DNA of 64,000 bases from Arthrobacter sp. SLBN-100. Its GTDB lineage: Bacteria; Actinomycetota; Actinomycetes; Actinomycetales; Micrococcaceae. Location of the stretch: NCBI RefSeq assembly GCF_006715305.1, contig NZ_VFMY01000001.1, positions 2,232,001 to 2,296,000 of the forward strand, written 5' to 3'. A program made the translations under genes and the position numbers. Shown piece after piece: positions 12,045 through 63,570 of the stretch; the stretch's first letter is position 1; the number at the start of each line of letters is the position of its first letter. Under the pieces are notes generated by a model. That model made no database searches, was not told where the DNA came from, and was given only the letters and a program-made list of their open reading frames with translations.

Positions 12045-12779
12045 CTAAGCGTCGAAATGTGTCTGGATGCTGGTGCCCTGCAGCTGCTCAATCAGTTCCG
12101 TGGCCACCTCACGCAGCTTACGGTTGCGGTTGCTGGAGACCTTGGTCAGGATCTCCATTGCTTCGGATTGCGAGCACCTGTTCTGCGCCATGATGACGCC
12201 GCAGGCCAGGTTGATGGCGGTCCGGCTTTGCATGGCTGCTTCCAGGTCTTCCGCCCGGTTTTCCGCAGTTTTAATCCGGACCGACAGATGTAGTGTGCTG
12301 TGCGCGGCGGCGCCAAAACCCACGGCCTTGTCGTAGACGTTCGGGGTGAAGACGCCCGGCTTGGAGGCGAAGAAGTTCAGTGCGGCGCTTGCCTCGCTGT
12401 TGATTTCCAGGGGCACGCCGAGCGAGCTGTAGATGCCTGACTCGGCGAACCTTTTGGTTAGCTCGGGCCATCGGGAGTCTGCGGTAACGTCGTCGATAAT
12501 CACCGGTGACATTTCCTTCAGTGCCCTCACGCAAGGTCCATCACCGACGGCCTGCTCAATGCGGTCCAGCTCCATGGCCCGAGCGCTGCTGCCGGCAACT
12601 GTAGAAGGCCTGCGCCTCAGCTTCACGGTGACTGCGCATTCGATGGCATCGCCCGCCGCTTCCGAAACCGCTGCAGCAGCCAAGCCGGAGAGCGCCGACA
12701 GGAACTGCACCCCATCCTCTGCCCCCACCAGGATGTCTTGAAGCTGCGCGACCGATTCGTTGTCCGATGGATTCGACAT
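12045..12779 (-). CDS. GAF-ANTAR domain protein 1
   Basis: A 244-residue cytoplasmic sensor-effector. Residues about 20-180 form a GAF domain with the subfamily motif VGDGPCVRALKEM and the ALNFFASKPGVF strand-turn. Residues about 185-240 form an ANTAR RNA-binding domain: LEAAMQSRTAINLACGVIMA, QNRCSQSEAMEILTKVSSNR and LREVATELIEQL. ANTAR proteins promote antitermination by binding paired hairpins with A1/G4 hexaloops; the RNA target is unknown. Spacing TAAGAT-6 nt-ATG upstream suggests a leaderless mRNA. It ends with THFDA, close to the THFDE end of GAF-ANTAR protein 2. It is transcribed away from the DUF2254 gene's 3' end (51-base gap, same strand). Confidence 0.92.
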   Translation of the reverse strand: MSNPSDNESVAQLQDILVGAEDGVQFLSALSGLAAAAVSEAAGDAIECAVTVKLRRRPSTVAGSSARAMELDRIEQAVGDGPCVRALKEMSPVIIDDVTADSRWPELTKRFAESGIYSSLGVPLEINSEASAALNFFASKPGVFTPNVYDKAVGFGAAAHSTLHLSVRIKTAENRAEDLEAAMQSRTAINLACGVIMAQNRCSQSEAMEILTKVSSNRNRKLREVATELIEQLQGTSIQTHFDA

Positions 12780-14463: not shown

Positions 14464-14688
14464 CTATTCGGGAAGCTCCATCTGGAAACCACACGGACAA
14501 TGCAGTACCTGCGTCGTCAGGTAAACATCCAAGGCGTCTTCCAGTGGCCGGTCAGTGAAGGCCGGCATGCTGAGCCTGCGCAGTTCGGAGCCGGTCTTCC
14601 GCATGGGCTGCCCGCAATGCATGAACTGGCCGCCAAAGGCCAGGACACTTTCGATGCGATTCCTGGGCCCCTCCGGATGGATGGACAT
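14464..14688 (-). CDS. Small Cys-containing protein, unknown function
   Basis: A 74-residue soluble protein with one early HCG (residues 24-26) and a C-terminal HCPCG (about 63-67), a pattern that could hold zinc but is not a recognised ribbon. It starts two bases after the stop of the 85-residue gene, so the two are co-transcribed. I do not recognise the family. Codon use is like its neighbours and supports a real gene. Confidence 0.6.
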   Translation of the reverse strand: MSIHPEGPRNRIESVLAFGGQFMHCGQPMRKTGSELRRLSMPAFTDRPLEDALDVYLTTQVLHCPCGFQMELPE

Positions 14689-14690
14689 TG

Positions 14691-14948
14691 TCAGGCCGCG
14701 GCAGGGTAGCTGGACAGGATGTAGTCAGCCGCTGCCGGGCCCACCATCCGGAGCCTGGTGTCGCTGAGGTCCACGCCGGCCCTATGCATTGCGGCGCGGA
14801 ACGCGACGTCCGGCTTGGCTTCCATACCTCCGAGCAGGCACCAACTGACGTAAAGCCCATAAAGGCAATCGGCAGACATGGGGCAGTCAGTATCGAATTC
14901 CGGGACGGTAGCTTCAGCAAGGAACTGTGAGAAGTGCGAGGCAGCCAT
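14691..14948 (-). CDS. Small protein, unknown function
   Basis: An 85-residue protein opening MAASHFSQFLAEATVPEFD, with two cysteines in DTDCPMSADCLYGLYVSWC and a conserved-looking LRMVGPAAADYILSSYPAAA end. The ATG at 14948 has GAAAGAGAG upstream; a longer in-frame start at 15020 adds a basic lead with no Shine-Dalgarno. It is coupled to the 74-residue gene downstream. The family is not recognised. The pair sits between two GAF-ANTAR genes. Confidence 0.6.
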   Translation of the reverse strand: MAASHFSQFLAEATVPEFDTDCPMSADCLYGLYVSWCLLGGMEAKPDVAFRAAMHRAGVDLSDTRLRMVGPAAADYILSSYPAAA

Positions 14949-15132
14949 TTTGGCTCTCTTTCGCTGGTGTGCATCTTTCCGCCGTGTTGCTACAGCGGTC
15001 ACTCCTGAAAGGCCCTGCACATGGCCCGGAGGGGTAGGCCGCCAATTACGTGACGCCTACCACTAAGAATTTACGCACTGGTGGTGCTTCTGTCCAATCT
15101 GATTAGCGAGACGCGCACCGAAGCCCATGGCA

Positions 15133-16017
15133 TTACTCGTCAAAGTGCGTGCGCAGGGCGGGGTCCGGCGACACTGATTCGATCACGCCCGCCGCCACAT
15201 CCCGCAGCTTGACGTTGCGGCTGTTGGAGGCCTTCCGCAAAATGTCCATAGCTGCGGCCTGGCTGCACCGGTTTTGAGCCATAATCACGCCGACGGCGAT
15301 GTCGATGGCCGTCCGCGACTTCATCGCAGCCTCCAGGTCCTCCTTCGCCTCCATCAACTGGACCAGGCGCAGTTCCAGCTTGAGGGTCTTGGCCGACTGC
15401 TCGCCGAACAATTCAGCACGGGCGATGTCAGTCGGCGAAAATCCGTGAGCTGCGGACGAATAGATATTCAAGGCAGCCGAGGAACCTGCGTCAAGTTCCA
15501 GGGGCACACCCAAGATAGAGCCCACACCGTAGGCTGCGACTGCCTGCGCGTACTCCGGCCAGCGCTGTTCATTGGCGACATCTGCCACGTAGATAGTTTT
15601 TCCGGTCCGGATGGCCGCGAGGCAGGGCCCATCGCCATAGGCGTACTGGAGTTCATCCATGACCCGCGCCCTGGTGCTGCTGGAGGCGACAGTGGTGGGG
15701 CGCTTCCGGCGCACCACCGTTACGTTGCAGTGAACCTCTCCCCCGGGTGGTGCCAGGAGGGAGGCTGAGAAAACCGCGAGTTCCTGGAAGAAGTCCTGGG
15801 CATCTGCAGTTTGCAGGACAAGGTCCTGCAAACGGGATACGACCCCGTCCTGAATTGCGGCGGCAACGGGCAAAGCGTCTGCTTTAGCGGGCAAAGAGGC
15901 TGTATTGGCTTGAGCGTCCACTGGATGTCCCTGAACTTGGGCGTCAACCGCAGCGGTTTCCCACGCGGCCTTTAGACGCCCACTTCCAAACGCTTCCCCC
16001 ACCCTACATCGAGTCGA
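15133..16017 (-). CDS. GAF-ANTAR domain protein 2
   Basis: A 294-residue member with a longer, Ala-rich N-terminus (residues 1-60, no domain). A helix DGVVSRLQDLVLQTADAQDF is followed by GAF (about 75-215) with VVRRKRPTTVASSSTRARVM and GDGPCLAAIRTG. ANTAR spans about 225-290: DLEAAMKSRTAIDIAVGVIM, RCSQAAAMDILRKASNSRNV and LRDVAAGVIESVS. It is closest by eye to GAF-ANTAR 1 and 6 (same LQDLVL/ASSSxxA and RTHFDE/DTYFDE ends). The start at 16017 is preferred; 16062 is possible. It is divergent from GAF-ANTAR 3 with about 143 bases between the starts. Confidence 0.9.
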   Translation of the reverse strand, partial: STRCRVGEAFGSGRLKAAWETAAVDAQVQGHPVDAQANTASLPAKADALPVAAAIQDGVVSRLQDLVLQTADAQDFFQELAVFSASLLAPPGGEVHCNVTVVRRKRPTTVASSSTRARVMDELQYAYGDGPCLAAIRTGKTIYVADVANEQRWPEYAQAVAAYGVGSILGVPLELDAGSSAALNIYSSAAHGFSPTDIARAELFGEQSAKTLKLELRLVQLMEAKEDLEAAMKSRTAIDIAVGVIMAQNRCSQAAAMDILRKASNSRNVKLRDVAAGVIESVSPDPALRTHFDE

Positions 16018-16072
16018 CATTCTTAGGACAAACCGCAGCGCCGGAACCCAGCGCGACGGCACCGGCAGGGGC

Positions 16073-16078
16073 TATGCT
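16073..16078 (+). promoter_or_regulatory. Candidate -10 (TATGCT) of GAF-ANTAR gene 3
   Basis: TATGCTGG at 16073-16080 matches TATGCTGG at 17459-17466 upstream of the paralogous GAF-ANTAR 4. Here it implies a leader of about 75 bases; for gene 4 it implies a leaderless start. The conserved octamer at two paralogous promoters is seen; promoter activity is inferred. Confidence 0.35.
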
Positions 16079-16160
16079 GGTAATGGATCAACAGAAATTC
16101 TCAGGTCCGGCCCAGCAGCGGGCGCCCCACAGCAATGTCCGCCGCAGAAGGTTGGCTACC

Positions 16161-16889
16161 ATGCCGCAGCAGCTCCCCCTGGATGAACTCACTCTCGCAA
16201 TGGCCCGCATCAATAACATGCTCCTGACCGAGGAGAAGGTGGACCGGGCCGTCCAATTGCTTGCCGAAGGCATTCGGGATGCCTTCCCCGCAAGCTCCGG
16301 CGCCGGAGTATCGCTCCTGGACGAAAAGGGCACCAGAACCAGCACCGGAGCCACCGATCCCGTTGTCCTGGAAGCCGACTCTGCCCAGTACGAACTCGGC
16401 CAAGGACCCTGCCTTACGGCGTGGGCTACCGAACGCACGGTAGTGATCCAGGACGTCTTCACCGATGACCGCTGGCCGTCGTGGTCGCTGGCCGTGAGGG
16501 ACCTTGCCATCCGGTCAGTCATCAGCGCACCGCTAATGGCCGGCAGGCGCTGCCTGGGGGCGTTGAAAATTTACTCGGCCCGGCCCGGGGCTTTTGACGC
16601 TGCCACCGCGCGGCCGCTGGAAAAACTTGTGGTTCCCGCGGCTACCCTTCTGGACAACATCCAAAGTTCTGATTCCCCGCTGCGCTTTACCCAGGTCCTG
16701 GCCTCTGCCCTGCACAGCCGGGATACCATCAACCGAGCCCAGGGCTTCCTGATGCGGTTGCATGGTTTGGACCAGGGCGAGGCCCTCAAGAAACTGGTGG
16801 AGCTGTCCAGGACCAGCAGGCAGTCGCTTCTCAGCGTCAGCACAGACATACTCACCGGGACGAAGAACATCTCCGATGACGGAACATGA
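16161..16889 (+). CDS. GAF-ANTAR domain protein 3
   Basis: A 242-residue protein starting MPQQLPLDELTLAMARINNM, a lead shared almost exactly with GAF-ANTAR 4 (MAQQLPLDELSTVIARIQG). GAF spans about residues 25-165, with GAGVSLLDEKG, the ELGQGPCLTAWATERTV motif and SVISAPLMAGRRCLGALKIY. ANTAR spans about 178-235: LASALHSRDTINRAQGFLMR and LKKLVELSRTSRQSLLSVST. The start at 16161 has AGAAGG upstream; the frame runs back to 16074. Its last 14 bases overlap the small helical gene that follows, so the two products are translationally coupled. Confidence 0.92.
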   Translation: MPQQLPLDELTLAMARINNMLLTEEKVDRAVQLLAEGIRDAFPASSGAGVSLLDEKGTRTSTGATDPVVLEADSAQYELGQGPCLTAWATERTVVIQDVFTDDRWPSWSLAVRDLAIRSVISAPLMAGRRCLGALKIYSARPGAFDAATARPLEKLVVPAATLLDNIQSSDSPLRFTQVLASALHSRDTINRAQGFLMRLHGLDQGEALKKLVELSRTSRQSLLSVSTDILTGTKNISDDGT

Positions 16890-17166
16890 CACGAGCGGCA
16901 CCGATCCCTCGGCTGGACTCGAGCAGGAACAAAGCCGGCTCCTGCGCAAAGCCCTGCTGCGCTCCCGCCTGAAGCATGGGGATCTCTGGTTGCGCTACTT
17001 CAGCATCGGAGGCAACGTGGGTGAGTACGAAGTGGATGCCTACATTCAGTCACTGCTGTCCCTGCCCCCAAGTCAACGTGACCTGCTGGCCCACGCAGCA
17101 AATGAACTCATCGACGAACTTCCACCACTGCCCCGCGCACCGTACCTGGAAGACCTCACCAAGTAA
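16876..17166 (+). CDS. Small helical protein partnered with GAF-ANTAR 3 (LWxxYF family, copy A)
   Basis: A 96-residue acidic soluble protein. After a variable lead, residues 37-91 carry the family core: LWLRYFSIGGNVGEYEVDAY, LLSLPPSQRDLLAHAANELI and a PRAPY tail. Predicted structure is three or four helices. The ATG lies inside the end of the GAF-ANTAR 3 frame (14-base overlap). Copies B (18200) and C (19434) occupy the same place after GAF-ANTAR 4 and 5. I do not know a function. The strict pairing suggests a partner, inhibitor or adaptor of the GAF-ANTAR protein (inference). Confidence 0.8.
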   Translation: MTEHDTSGTDPSAGLEQEQSRLLRKALLRSRLKHGDLWLRYFSIGGNVGEYEVDAYIQSLLSLPPSQRDLLAHAANELIDELPPLPRAPYLEDLTK

Positions 17167-17387
17167 GAAGGAGCCCGTGTCTTGCACTCGCGCTGAGGCT
17201 CAGCAGCGCCATGCTCGCCTCCGTCATAGAAGAGAGCTCTTTCACACTGTCCTCCCCGCAGGCACTGGCCCCGGAAGACGTCTACCCGGTGCGCCCAACA
17301 ACTTCTCCCTGCGCTTCACAGTCTCCGGGAGCCAGCCGCATCCCAGCCCGGAGCCGGGTGCCTGAACGTGCGCGCCCGGGGATGCTG

Positions 17388-17445
17388 CCCGCCGTCGTAA
17401 TCCCTCCATTCAGGCAGACTCCCTGGGTGCCGGAGGGACGGCGGG
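17388..17445. terminator. Bulged stem-loop, divergent GACGGCGGG-family copy
   Basis: CCCGCCGT(17388-17395), six extra bases, CCCTCC pair with GGAGGG-ACGGCGGG (17432-17445), giving a 14-bp stem with one bulge. It uses the core of the dispersed palindrome family and sits between cassette 1 and the promoter of cassette 2, so it probably ends the first transcript. Confidence 0.5.
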
Positions 17446-17458
17446 AAGGCCATGGCTC

Positions 17459-17470
17459 TATGCTGGAACT
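17459..17470 (+). promoter_or_regulatory. Candidate leaderless promoter of GAF-ANTAR gene 4
   Basis: TATGCT (17459-17464) is followed by GGAACT and the ATG at 17471. The six-base distance suggests transcription starts at the ATG. GGAACT could instead serve as a weak Shine-Dalgarno, but it touches the start codon, too close for normal use. Confidence 0.35.
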
Positions 17471-18190
17471 ATGGCGCAGCAACTTCCCCTTGATGAGCTC
17501 AGCACTGTGATCGCTCGAATCCAGGGGTTGCTGCTCACGGAAGAAAAGGTGAACACGGCCGTCCGGCTCTTAGCGCGGGCGGCGAAGGAGTCGGTTCCGG
17601 GCACTATTGGAGCGGGGATTTCCCTCCTGGATGCCCGTGGACGCCGCATCAGCAGCGGTTACACGGACAGGATTGTGGCGCAGACCGACGCGAGGCAGTA
17701 CGAATGTGGCGAGGGCCCTTGCCTGACCGCCTGGGCCACGGAAAAGCCGGTTCTCCTTGCGGACATCCGGGAGGAGTCCCGGTGGCCGGATTGGCGCAGG
17801 GCCGTGCAGGGGCTGCCAGTGCGCTCGGTTGTGAGTGCTCCCCTCATCGCCGGCAAGGAGTCAATCGGCGCACTGAAGCTGTATGCCGCGGCCCCAAATA
17901 CTTTTGACGAATCCAGCACCACCCTGCTTCAACTTTTTGCGGCGCCCGCCGCCACGCTGCTCTCGCACATCCAGGCCAGCGAGGCACCGCACAAAATGAC
18001 CGAGGGCCTGCAGACGTCCTTGCACAGCCGTGACCTTGTGAACCGTGCGTGCGGTGTGCTGATGGAGCGCCTCGGGCTTAGCCACGAAGCGGCCCTGCGC
18101 CTGTTGATCAGGCAGGCCCGGGACGGGAACACAGCGTTGCAGGATATCAGCGAGAGCGTCCTGGCCGGGACGCCGGCATCCGGGTCGTAG
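17471..18190 (+). CDS. GAF-ANTAR domain protein 4
   Basis: A 239-residue paralogue of GAF-ANTAR 3. The lead is MAQQLPLDELSTVIARIQG, GAF spans about residues 25-165 with GAGISLLDARGRRISSG, YECGEGPCLTAWATEKPVLL and RSVVSAPLIAGKESIGALKL, and ANTAR spans about 178-232 (LHSRDLVNRACGVLMERLGL and ALRLLIRQARDGNTALQDIS). It keeps the classical GVLM of the ANTAR helix, which GAF-ANTAR 3 has as GFLM. It is followed after nine bases by small helical copy B. The 3+A and 4+B cassettes look like a tandem duplication with later divergence. Confidence 0.92.
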   Translation: MAQQLPLDELSTVIARIQGLLLTEEKVNTAVRLLARAAKESVPGTIGAGISLLDARGRRISSGYTDRIVAQTDARQYECGEGPCLTAWATEKPVLLADIREESRWPDWRRAVQGLPVRSVVSAPLIAGKESIGALKLYAAAPNTFDESSTTLLQLFAAPAATLLSHIQASEAPHKMTEGLQTSLHSRDLVNRACGVLMERLGLSHEAALRLLIRQARDGNTALQDISESVLAGTPASGS

Positions 18191-18199
18191 GAAGCGCCC

Positions 18200-18538
18200 A
18201 TGGGTTTTGATCCTAACGAACCGGAACAACGGCGCAGGCTGCGTTCAGCAATGAGGGCCGCCGGCATATCCGTATCCGAGCTGTGGCTGAAATATTTCGG
18301 CATGTCCGGAGACGCCGGCGAATACGAGGTGGAGGCATACCTGCAGGGGCTGCTGTCGCTGCCACCGGTACAGCGTGACCTGCTCGCGTTGGCGGCCAAT
18401 GAGCTGATAGACGACCTCCCCCGGCCCCGCGCACCCTACTCTGACGATTTCGACGGCGGCCCAGGTCCCGGTTCCGGCCCCACCCCGTCGGAGATCCTGG
18501 AAGATGGCACGGGGCGGCAACCGGAGCCGGACGAGTAG
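18200..18538 (+). CDS. Small helical protein partnered with GAF-ANTAR 4 (LWxxYF family, copy B)
   Basis: A 112-residue protein. The core at residues 27-80 is LWLKYFGMSGDAGEYEVEAY, LLSLPPVQRDLLALAANELI and PRAPY, nearly the same as copy A. The C-terminus adds a Gly/Pro-rich acidic tail (GGPGPGSGPTPSE) that copies A and C lack. GGAAG ends seven bases before the ATG. The nine-base gap from GAF-ANTAR 4 indicates co-transcription. The function is unknown. Confidence 0.8.
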   Translation: MGFDPNEPEQRRRLRSAMRAAGISVSELWLKYFGMSGDAGEYEVEAYLQGLLSLPPVQRDLLALAANELIDDLPRPRAPYSDDFDGGPGPGSGPTPSEILEDGTGRQPEPDE

Positions 18539-18705
18539 ATCGAAGGGCCGGGCATATCAATAGGTCCGGCACCGGCGTAGTGTCGGTAGTAGGAGATTTC
18601 GGGATACCAACAGATCCAGAGGTTGAATGATCGGGTTCACCGCGTAGAGAGCGGAGGCCGCCAGCCAGGGGCATTGCCCACGGCATACCCAGGGATCGAG
18701 GGCCA

Positions 18706-19431
18706 ATGGCCCAGGACAGCAGACTTACCACTTCGGACCGGATGCAGGATTTGCTCCTCGAAAGTCCCGGCTTCCCTGAGTTCCTCCTGGGTTTGGCCAC
18801 TATCTCCGCCTCATTGCTGGGCTCCGACGGCCCGATCACCTGCACCATCACCGTGGAGCGTGAGGGAGGCCTTGCAACGGTTGCCAGCAGCAGCGAGGCG
18901 GGGCGGCGGCTGGATGAAACGCAGTACGCTTTCGACGATGGCCCATGCCTGACTGCTGCACGGCAGCAGCGCCTGGTGTTGATTGCGGACCTGAAAAGCG
19001 ACGAACGCTGGAGCGACTATCTGGAAATGGCACTCCGGGAAGGCGTGCGCTCAGTATTGGCTGTTCCCATCCCCACAGACCCCTTGTCGCATGCCGGACT
19101 GAACTGCTATGCAAGCACCGTGGGCGCCTTCACGAAGGAGACCGTGGGGCTTCTCGAACAGCACGCGGCAGCCATGTCCCGGGTACTCCGGATTGCCCTG
19201 CGGCTGCACGGGTCAGAGTTTCATCCCGAGCACCTCCACGCCGCGCTGAAGTCACGGTCGGTGGTGGACGCGGCCGTGTCCCTGATCATGCTCCAGCAGC
19301 GCGGCGGACGGGAAGGCGCCCTGGAGATTCTTCAACTGGGCGCCAAGTCCGCTAACCGCCGGATGCAGGACATCGCCACTGACATTGTCCGCGGAGCCGG
19401 AGTCCCCGGAACCCAAGGAAACGGAGGGTAG
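18706..19431 (+). CDS. GAF-ANTAR domain protein 5 (divergent ANTAR)
   Basis: A 241-residue protein. GAF spans about residues 15-165, with GPITCTITVEREGGLATVAS, FDDGPCLTAARQQRLVLIAD and SVLAVPIPTDPLSHAGLNCY. The C-terminal region LHAALKSRSVVDAAVSLIML, REGALEILQLGAKSANRRMQ and DIATDIV aligns with ANTAR, but the usual GV(L/I)M is SLIM and the segment after it is shorter, so RNA binding may be altered. The start at 18706 has GAGGG upstream. It is followed after two bases by small helical copy C, whose GGAGG site overlaps this gene's stop. Confidence 0.88.
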   Translation: MAQDSRLTTSDRMQDLLLESPGFPEFLLGLATISASLLGSDGPITCTITVEREGGLATVASSSEAGRRLDETQYAFDDGPCLTAARQQRLVLIADLKSDERWSDYLEMALREGVRSVLAVPIPTDPLSHAGLNCYASTVGAFTKETVGLLEQHAAAMSRVLRIALRLHGSEFHPEHLHAALKSRSVVDAAVSLIMLQQRGGREGALEILQLGAKSANRRMQDIATDIVRGAGVPGTQGNGG

Positions 19432-19433
19432 GA

Positions 19434-19685
19434 ATGTATCCCTATGGGACCGAAGGTCCGGAACCGCCGGACCCGGCCGCCGAAGAACGGCGGGGCACCG
19501 CGGAGCGCTTCCGCAAGGCAGACCTTCCGCTGGGCCAATTATGGACGTACTACTACGGGCTCGGCGGCGGAATTGACGAGCTGTCCCTGGATGCCTATCT
19601 CAATGAGGCACTTGACATCCCGGCCGGGCAAGTCGCGTTGATCGCCATGGCCATGACGGAACTAATGGAAGGCGAATCACTATGA
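19434..19685 (+). CDS. Small helical protein partnered with GAF-ANTAR 5 (LWxxYF family, copy C)
   Basis: An 83-residue, more divergent family member: a Pro/Glu-rich lead, then LWTYYYGLGGGIDELSLDAY, EALDIPAGQVALIAMAMTEL and a short end without PRAPY. It preserves LW, the aromatic pair, GG, E-L/Y, AY, the IP/LP turn and the final E-L/I. GGAGGG lies five to ten bases before the ATG. Its stop overlaps the ATG of GAF-ANTAR 6 (ATGA), so copy C links two GAF-ANTAR genes in one transcript. Confidence 0.78.
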   Translation: MYPYGTEGPEPPDPAAEERRGTAERFRKADLPLGQLWTYYYGLGGGIDELSLDAYLNEALDIPAGQVALIAMAMTELMEGESL

Positions 19686-20452
19686 CGAACCTGGAGCCCG
19701 GCGCCGGGAGCTTTAGCGCCCTGCCGCAGGCGCCCGCGGACATGGAGAAGCAGCTGCAGGAACTGGTCCTGGACAGCAAGGATGTACACAGCTTCCTTAC
19801 CGATCTGGCAGTGCTGGCCTCCGCCAAATTGTCTTCCCCGGGCAACAGGATCCATACCGGCATCACCGTCATACGGCGCAAGAGGCCCGAAGCCCTGGCC
19901 AGCAGCAGCGCAACGGCCAGAGCCTTGGACGAGATGCAGAACGGGTTCGGTGACGGCCCGTGCCTGACAGCTCTTCGGAACGGAACCACTCTCCTGGTTC
20001 CTGACCTGGCCTACGAGCGACGCTGGGCTCCCTACGTGCAGGCCGCCCGAGAGAATGGTGTCTCATCTATCCTTGCTGTCCCGATGGGCCTGGCCGGCGA
20101 GGCTGAAGCCGTCATGAACCTGTACTCCGGCTGCAGCAACGGATTCATGCCCGAGGACATCTCCATCGCGGAAGCGTTCGCCAGCCAAGCCGCAAGTTCG
20201 CTGCGGCTGGTCCTTCGCATCGCCCAGTTGAGTGAGGCCAGAAACGACCTCGCAATAGCCATGCAGTCCCGCACCGTGATCGACATGGCCATCGGAGCCG
20301 TCATGGCCGAGAACAGGTGCACACGGGATACGGCCTTCAAGATCCTCACCAAGGCCTCGAGCTCCCGCAATATCAAGCTGCGGGAAGTGGCAGCTGCAGT
20401 GATCATGTCCATTTCGGGTGAGAAGCAGATCGACACCTACTTCGACGAATAG
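19682..20452 (+). CDS. GAF-ANTAR domain protein 6
   Basis: A 256-residue protein. A helix (MEKQLQELVLDSKDVHSFLT) precedes GAF (about residues 40-180) with VIRRKRPEALASSSATARAL, GDGPCLTALRNGTTLLVPDL and SILAVPMGLAG. ANTAR spans about 192-250: DLAIAMQSRTVIDMAIGAVM, AENRCTRDTAFKILTKASSS and IKLREVAAAVIMSIS, ending DTYFDE. By eye it is closer to the leftward proteins 1 and 2 than to 3, 4 and 5. The ATGA overlap with copy C shows translational coupling. It has no small partner after it; 310 bases with remnants follow. Confidence 0.92.
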   Translation: MTNLEPGAGSFSALPQAPADMEKQLQELVLDSKDVHSFLTDLAVLASAKLSSPGNRIHTGITVIRRKRPEALASSSATARALDEMQNGFGDGPCLTALRNGTTLLVPDLAYERRWAPYVQAARENGVSSILAVPMGLAGEAEAVMNLYSGCSNGFMPEDISIAEAFASQAASSLRLVLRIAQLSEARNDLAIAMQSRTVIDMAIGAVMAENRCTRDTAFKILTKASSSRNIKLREVAAAVIMSISGEKQIDTYFDE

Positions 20453-20762: not shown

Positions 20763-20960
20763 ATGACGTTCGATGCCAATGATTCCGTGACCCTCAAGAT
20801 CTGGGACCGGTCAGCCCTCCACCACACGCTTGACGCCGCGGTGAGTGACCTCTCGGCCCGCCACAACACCACCTCGTGCCGCATTGCCGTCACTTGCAGC
20901 GGACCCAACACGTTCACGTTGAGCGTCCGCGGCGAGGACCGCGCCCTGGTCTCCGCCTGA
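20763..20960 (+). CDS. Small protein, unknown function
   Basis: A 65-residue soluble protein (MTFDANDSVTLKIWDRSALH ... TFTLSVRGEDRALVSA) with a probable beta-alpha-beta pattern. GGAAG precedes the ATG by eight bases, and TAATG overlap joins it to the upstream open frame. I do not recognise the family. It closes the GAF-ANTAR region and is convergent with trxB across a strong terminator. Confidence 0.55.
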   Translation: MTFDANDSVTLKIWDRSALHHTLDAAVSDLSARHNTTSCRIAVTCSGPNTFTLSVRGEDRALVSA

Positions 20961-63334: not shown

Positions 63335-63540
63335 GTTCCTCCCCGCTCTGTATTGGACCTGAGAGTTTTGCGTTGCCCTGCCGTTTCGCAGGACGCCACT
63401 TGCACCGTCGGTGAGTCCGGTTGCCCGGACTGCTTTCCAGAGTTGCCTTGCCGCGGCGGTACGTGGGCCTGAGAGATTCCTGGGGAGGGTTTGCTCCTAC
63501 GGCGCCTGCTGAACGTACCGGCAGGACTCTCCCGCCGCAG
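63335..63540 (-). promoter_or_regulatory. Tandem glycine riboswitch (two aptamers) controlling gcvP
   Basis: The leader transcribed leftward to gcvP holds two aptamers of the glycine class. Aptamer 1 (about 63540-63452) reads GGCGGGAGAGTCCTGCCGG, later GGCGCCGTAGGAGCAAA and AATCTCTCAGGCCC. Aptamer 2 (about 63450-63335) reads GCAACTCTGGAAAGCAG, then CACCGACGGTGCAAGT, GGCAGGGCAA and AACTCTCAGGTCC. GGAGAG/CTCTCAGG pairs and the GAAAG/GCAA cores are diagnostic. In known cases it turns on gcv genes when glycine is plentiful. About 50 bases separate it from the start codon. Confidence 0.93.
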
Positions 63541-63541
63541 A

Positions 63542-63570
63542 TCATTAGCATGTGCCACTGGTGGGTGACA
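63542..63570 (-). promoter_or_regulatory. Candidate promoter of the gcv operon
   Basis: On the reverse strand TGTCAC (63570-63565), a 17-base spacer and TAATGA (63547-63542) would start transcription a few bases before the first aptamer. Both hexamers are only fair matches; the position, just before the riboswitch, is the main support. Confidence 0.4.

What the first reader, a model, noticed from the sequence alone, without database searches (positions are those of the whole stretch)
16161..20452. Array of GAF-ANTAR regulators each coupled to a small helical protein of one unknown family
Seen: three cassettes of GAF-ANTAR + small protein in a row (16161/16876, 17471/18200, 18706/19434), then a fourth GAF-ANTAR gene by ATGA overlap (19682). 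Two more GAF-ANTAR genes lie to the left (12045, 15133). The pairs overlap or are 2-9 bases apart. Established: ANTAR domains bind paired-hexaloop RNA and act as antiterminators. Inference: a multi-signal RNA-level regulatory array with dedicated partner proteins that may gate dimerisation or RNA binding. Six such genes in 8.4 kb is unusual.
Basis: partly seen in the sequence, partly recalled or inferred. Interest (0 to 1): 0.86.

Follow-up and report, generated by a model that had tools for sequence, protein, structure and literature searches.

The report
Sensor genes with dedicated small partners
A soil bacterium carries a row of sensor-type regulator genes, several of them joined to a small acidic protein of an unnamed family whose predicted shape resembles a repressor's DNA-binding domain, which suggests a sensor-plus-partner switch that has not been tested.

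Summary
Six GAF-ANTAR genes lie in 8.4 kb; three are followed, at -14, +9 and +2 nt, by small proteins of one family without a Pfam or NCBIfam match, and the third small gene overlaps the next GAF-ANTAR gene by ATGA. Among 79 loci fetched by the small protein alone, 67 have a GAF-ANTAR gene within 50 nt directly upstream. The pairing recurs in three actinobacterial genomes of two other classes. Each small protein co-diversifies with its neighbour (r 0.92, 86 pairs), and six GAF fusions exist. Linkage fades in the wider family: 10 of 20 sampled lower-ranked hits, 9 of 33 weak relatives within 200 nt. Stand-alone copies are common.
Two results change the reading. The small protein is confidently modelled as four helices, and its structural matches are, by title, nearly all lambda-repressor-like domains; but the helix that would read DNA is acidic, and no sequence family confirms the link. 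Second, partnered ANTAR domains have mostly lost an aromatic and a basic residue that contact RNA in studied ANTAR proteins.
Best reading: a co-translated partner that gates, or serves as output of, its GAF-ANTAR protein. Contact could not be tested; RNA targets are unknown.

The parts
16161..16889 (+). GAF-ANTAR protein, cassette 1 (a start at 16083 is possible)
   Evidence: Pfam GAF_2, GAF, ANTAR over cut-off; ANTAR has L at EutV Y164 and S at R177
16876..17166 (+). small LWxxYF-family partner 1 (96 aa), overlaps the 16161 gene by 14 nt
   Evidence: 59% identical to the 18200 protein; no Pfam or NCBIfam hit at E<=1
17471..18190 (+). GAF-ANTAR protein, cassette 2
   Evidence: Pfam; ANTAR has L at Y164 and A at R177
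18200..18538 (+). small LWxxYF-family partner 2 (112 aa), 9 nt downstream
   Evidence: 408 homologues E<=1e-3; AF2 model mean pLDDT 82, helices 7-21, 25-34, 41-48, 56-71
18706..19431 (+). GAF-ANTAR protein, cassette 3 (weakest ANTAR score of the six)
   Evidence: Pfam ANTAR 33.9 bits; L at Y164, R at R177
19434..19685 (+). small LWxxYF-family partner 3 (83 aa, divergent subtype), 2 nt downstream
   Evidence: 35% identity to the 18200 protein, E 2e-12
19682..20452 (+). GAF-ANTAR protein, ATGA overlap with 19434; F at EutV Y164 and K at R177
15133..16062 (-). GAF-ANTAR protein on the other strand, not followed by an LWxxYF gene; M at Y164, K at R177
14691..15020 (-). small SHFxxFL protein 112 nt downstream of 15133; relatives lie upstream of orphan LWxxYF genes
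   Evidence: no Pfam hit
14464..14688 (-). small cysteine-containing protein (HCGQPM, zinc-ribbon-like by eye) after the SHFxxFL gene
   Evidence: reading only
12045..12779 (-). GAF-ANTAR protein, leftmost of the group; M at Y164, K at R177
17454..17474 (+). GGCTCTATGCTGGAACTATGG: possible -10 element 6 nt before the start codon (leaderless promoter, inferred)
   Evidence: TATGCTG in 11 of 12 aligned sequences (window and 11 chosen loci); TATGCTGNNA-ATGG pattern twice in window, expected 0.01
16073..16086 (+). second copy of the TATGCTGG..ATGG motif, before cassette 1

Best explanation
The array is a set of sensor-plus-partner modules. In each, a GAF-ANTAR protein (sensor domain, linker, helical output domain) is encoded with its own small acidic protein, modelled as a lambda-repressor-like helical fold. 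The small protein most likely binds its cognate GAF-ANTAR protein and gates it or carries its output, in the manner of the NasS-NasT complex. In the partnered ANTAR domains this protein contact has probably replaced or modified classical RNA reading. Shown: gene pairing, co-diversification, GAF fusions, loss of RNA-contact residues. Supported by a model: the fold. Inferred: the binding, its direction and the signal.
Against: About half of the sampled lower-ranked family hits are not linked to GAF-ANTAR, and the orphans inspected stand beside unrelated-looking genes, so the domain can act without this partner. No contact was shown: the joined-pair prediction did not finish, and covariation was diffuse and confounded by phylogeny. 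The fused proteins showed no ANTAR. Foldseek E-values are weak (best 0.7). Within-locus shuffles largely swap two subtypes. The ANTAR differences may simply mark a clade, and unpaired ANTARs also depart from EutV at several contacts.
Confidence: 0.5

Rival explanations
1. The small protein is a DNA-binding regulator of the XRE type; the GAF-ANTAR protein senses a signal and releases or recruits it to DNA.
For: Structural matches are mostly XRE or POU-specific DNA-binding domains. The deep-branch profile aligns collinearly with 14 XRE domains of the window's genome (hhalign probability 49%, E 1.8e-4 for that single comparison). The helix-3 segment is less acidic in the deep branch (mean -1.7).
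Against: In the main family the would-be recognition-helix segment carries mean charge -3.0 against -0.1 in the XRE set; the core -4.8 against +1.8. No helix-turn-helix family was listed for 102 or 22 members at E<=10, only scattered weak matches, two of the families listed being ribbon-helix-helix. The main-family profile gives no XRE alignment.
Confidence: 0.2
2. Classical ANTAR reading: the GAF-ANTAR proteins read hexaloop RNAs and the small proteins only tune dimerisation or stability.
For: ANTAR domains pass Pfam; R142 is kept in 86 of 86 partnered ANTARs; 18706 keeps R at R177; Arthrobacter is among the genera with species reported to have many predicted ANTAR RNAs (PMC8164766).
Against: F at Y164 in 2 of 86 and K/R at R177 in 20 of 86 partnered ANTARs. 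Dual hexaloops in the window near chance (3 at stem 4, about 1.2 expected; 0 at stem 5). The cassette-2 promoter looks leaderless (inference).
Confidence: 0.2
3. Neighbourhood without function: a locally duplicating operon in which the small gene is retained without binding its neighbour.
For: Many copies lie apart; some genomes hold 16 or more copies (where only 16 candidates per genome were scored).
Against: Recurrence across classes, tight spacing, co-diversification above within-locus shuffles, fusions.
Confidence: 0.1

Closest known systems
NasS-NasT (nitrate/nitrite-responsive complex with an ANTAR protein)
   Same: A protein encoded with an ANTAR protein forms a complex with it and releases it on a signal (PMC3795266 abstract and outline; that NasT has ANTAR is recalled).
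   Different: Here the neighbour is a helical domain of about 70 residues, and the sensor-type domain (GAF) sits in the ANTAR protein.
AmiC-AmiR
   Same: An ANTAR protein regulated by direct contact with a partner (PMC8934654 passages).
   Different: AmiC contacts a pseudo-receiver domain; here there is GAF and a different, very small partner.
NasR and EutV ANTAR antiterminators
   Same: ANTAR output domain behind a sensor or receiver domain; R142 conserved.
   Different: Partnered ANTARs here mostly lack the aromatic and the basic RNA-contact residues.
XRE / lambda-repressor-like and POU-specific DNA-binding domains
   Same: Predicted fold.
   Different: No helix-turn-helix sequence family match; acidic recognition-helix segment in the main family.

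Membership tests
ANTAR antiterminators (EutV/NasR type) | ANTAR domain over Pfam cut-off | tested here: met
   6 of 6 window proteins
ANTAR antiterminators (EutV/NasR type) | aromatic residue at EutV Y164 / NasR W362 (stacks on hexaloop G4 in EutV) | tested here: not met
   L in all three partnered window proteins; F in 2 of 86 partnered and 34 of 70 unpaired in relatives
ANTAR antiterminators (EutV/NasR type) | basic residue at EutV R177 (phosphate contact) | tested here: inconclusive
   S, A and R in the three partnered window proteins; K/R in 20 of 86 partnered, 69 of 70 unpaired
ANTAR antiterminators (EutV/NasR type) | dual-hexaloop target RNA nearby | tested here: inconclusive
   0 at stem 5; 3 at stem 4 against about 1.2 in shuffles, one of them in the array on the opposite strand; targets could lie elsewhere in the genome
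XRE / lambda-repressor-like domain (small protein) | fold | tested here: inconclusive
XRE / lambda-repressor-like domain (small protein) | match to a helix-turn-helix sequence family | tested here: not met
   none listed for 102 and 22 members at E<=10; one profile comparison E 1.8e-4, one empty
XRE / lambda-repressor-like domain (small protein) | DNA binding | not testable with these tools
   acidic helix-3 segment argues against the canonical mode in the main family
Partner-gated ANTAR systems (NasS-NasT, AmiC-AmiR) | partner gene adjacent to the ANTAR gene | tested here: met
   67 of 79 loci
Partner-gated ANTAR systems (NasS-NasT, AmiC-AmiR) | physical complex that dissociates on signal | not testable with these tools
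   joined-pair prediction did not finish

The most novel reading that the evidence does not exclude
A new protein-level signalling module: in the partnered proteins the ANTAR domain has been turned from reading RNA to controlling a dedicated repressor-fold partner. A GAF sensor then acts through a small HTH-shaped acidic protein, and Micrococcaceae have multiplied the module into multi-signal arrays, with stand-alone and GAF-fused versions of the partner.
Probability: 0.25. Interest if true: 0.78.

Novelty: new variant of a known kind. Interest (0 to 1): 0.6.

Why it matters
In actinobacteria the number of ANTAR proteins per genome (1 to more than 10) does not always match the number of predicted ANTAR target RNAs; species of five genera, Arthrobacter among them, are reported with nearly 10 and up to 36 RNAs (PMC8164766 section 6). 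If one class of GAF-ANTAR works through a small partner instead of, or on top of, RNA, that could help explain the mismatch and give a testable new protein family. It would also show an RNA-binding output domain changing its target.

Tried and rejected
Whole-window Rfam scan at gathering thresholds: only a tandem glycine riboswitch. Long open frames holding the small domain in L170-L172 looked like large fusions but gave no Pfam hit and are read as artefacts of high G+C. Inter-protein covariation (121 non-identical pairs, effective number 69): top couplings exceed within-cluster shuffles (top-20 mean 1.52 against 1.05, 15 shuffles) but are spread over GAF, linker and ANTAR and confounded by phylogeny; not used. 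Upstream alignment for a conserved leader RNA: only the TATGCTG..ATG element stood out, so an ANTAR leader on cassette 2 was set aside (11 loci chosen of 79). PDB sequence search with the small family: best E 0.74, no meaningful match. One search (four terms) found no paper; one search was swamped by Antarctica.

Limits of the counts. GAF-ANTAR genes in fetched loci were found with a profile built from the six window proteins. The 79 loci come from about 69 record names, include near relatives, and the scan's peptide patterns favour the main subtype; sets overlap between calls. In some searches GAF-ANTAR frames outside 200-420 aa, under 60 bits, or unpaired ones near a locus end were dropped. 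In one search the strict script gives 25 of 27 within 60 nt; L039 has a shorter ANTAR frame 12 nt upstream, which would make 26. '10 of 20' is 8 of 17 plus three known (two linked, one not); the pick was every fifth of the first 100 listed rows without a locus, own genome left out, so the strongest hits (those with loci, 20 of 27 linked) are not in it. Searches scored only 12-16 candidates per genome, so copies and genomes there are lower bounds. The tree is FastTree with long-branch warnings.
Full report
OBSERVATION. The window lies in one contig of a 4.94 Mb genome. Named close homologues of its second small protein come from Pseudarthrobacter and Arthrobacter. The small proteins are homologous, have no Pfam or NCBIfam match at E<=1, and the second has 408 relatives at E<=1e-3; the best 120 were listed, and those with a source name are called hypothetical. 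ANTAR has 17 matches in this genome, six of them here.

LINKAGE. A scan of genome contigs with the small family alone kept 79 loci. 67 of 79 have a GAF-ANTAR gene within 50 nt directly upstream on the same strand; six have none in the locus; the other six are more than 50 nt and up to 6 kb away. A search of 39 relative genomes, own included, gave 60 hits in 19 of them. Of the 27 strongest (E<=2e-18), 25 lie within 60 nt of a GAF-ANTAR gene, all in the same direction: 17 nearest to one upstream, 8 nearest to one downstream. Of the 33 weaker hits, 7 lie within 60 nt but convergent, 2 are divergent at 104-187 nt, and 24 are not within 200 nt. In the family-wide search, 20 of the 27 newly made loci are within 60 nt, but of a sample of lower-ranked hits only 8 of 17, or 10 of 20 with three already known. 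So pairing marks the close family; the wider domain family also lives alone, 16 or more copies in some genomes (capped at 16 scored), and the orphans inspected stand beside unrelated-looking genes.

RANGE. 80 of 295 Micrococcaceae genomes gave a match. In the order, 0 of the 14 genomes from other families drawn matched. A phylum-wide sample (396 genomes) found it in two genomes outside the class, G466 and G493, apart from one weak hit read as spurious (G608, E 2.7e-4); a second profile on the same sample again gave G466 and G493. Class-wide searches gave 2 of 66 (adding G729) and 1 of 24. In all three genomes a GAF-ANTAR gene lies directly upstream; three of the four copies are linked. The two branches are clearly related (hhalign probability 99%, E 2.7e-19).

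CO-DIVERSIFICATION. For 86 pairs the distance matrices of the small and GAF-ANTAR proteins correlate at r 0.92. Shuffling partners within loci (41 of 86 pairs, in 19 loci, can move) gives a mean of 0.23 and none as high in 2000; this mostly swaps subtypes. Inside the two main GAF-ANTAR clusters r is 0.84 (65 pairs) and 0.79 (20 pairs), above 1000 full shuffles. Pairing needs 10 changes on the GAF-ANTAR tree, against 54 for shuffled labels.

FUSIONS. Six proteins carry the small domain at the N-terminal side and a GAF domain over Pfam's cut-off at the C-terminal side (loci L127, L135, L183, L187 twice, L189; four or five genomes, since unnamed and named ones may coincide). No ANTAR domain was listed for them. 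L135 has a run of N before the domain. This links the domain to GAF sensing independently of gene order.

ANTAR RESIDUES. EutV contacts RNA through R142, K143, K147, K149, E160, Y164, R168, M172, N173, R175 and R177 (PMC8934654, passages seen; mapped by me through the alignment). Partnered ANTARs keep R142 (86 of 86) but have F at Y164 in 2 of 86 and K/R at R177 in 20 of 86. Unpaired ones have F at Y164 in 34 of 70 and K/R at R177 in 69 of 70. In NasR, W362A lost RNA binding and the authors hypothesise that an aromatic is required there (PMC7496416, passages seen). The three partnered window proteins all have L at that position; unpaired 19682 has F, but 12045 and 15133 have M. This is suggestive, not proof: partnered proteins cluster on the tree, and unpaired ANTARs also depart from EutV at K149, E160 and M172.

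PROMOTERS AND RNA. Cassettes 1 and 2 share TATGCTGG..ATGG just before a start codon (2 sites, expected 0.01); TATGCTG stands before cassette 2 in 11 of 12 aligned sequences. This looks like a -10 element of a leaderless transcript (inference). Dual hexaloops in the window are near chance.

PRINT. Full-text searches for 'ANTAR domain' (30 papers), ANTAR with Pseudarthrobacter (2) and 'GAF and ANTAR' / 'GAF-ANTAR' (2) were seen as listings; of four papers I saw parts: PMC8164766 (abstract, outline, section 6, passages), PMC8934654 (passages), PMC7496416 (passages), PMC3795266 (abstract and outline). None of what I saw describes this partner family; PMC11854999 was not opened.

VERDICT. A real, recurrent two-gene module with a confidently modelled but unnamed partner family. 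The mechanism is inferred.

Noticed in passing
window 14464-15020 (-) and L023:8517-8837, L078, L123, L128: A second unnamed small-protein family (SHFxxFL) lies after GAF-ANTAR 15133, with a cysteine-containing HCGQPM protein behind it, and also upstream of orphan LWxxYF genes; four matches in the own genome, matches in 14 of 23 genomes searched, own included.
   Followed up: partly
L123:6001-7287, L128:6001-7367: Orphan LWxxYF genes after SHFxxFL genes lie about 100-200 nt upstream of a gene that reads like cytochrome c oxidase subunit II (name by eye).
   Followed up: no
L063, L227, L229-L233: Weak LWxxYF relatives, mostly of one LWLEFVGLGG subfamily, lie tail-to-tail with a GAF-ANTAR gene in seven same-genus genomes.
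   Followed up: partly
window 63338-63544 (-): Tandem glycine riboswitch (Rfam RF00504 twice).
   Followed up: no
L115: A contig filed as Vibrio cholerae 35D encodes an Arthrobacter-type GAF-ANTAR/small pair; probably contamination of that assembly.
   Followed up: no
window 20763-20960 (+): Small open frame between the last GAF-ANTAR gene and a thioredoxin-reductase-like gene (name by eye) on the other strand; not analysed.
   Followed up: no
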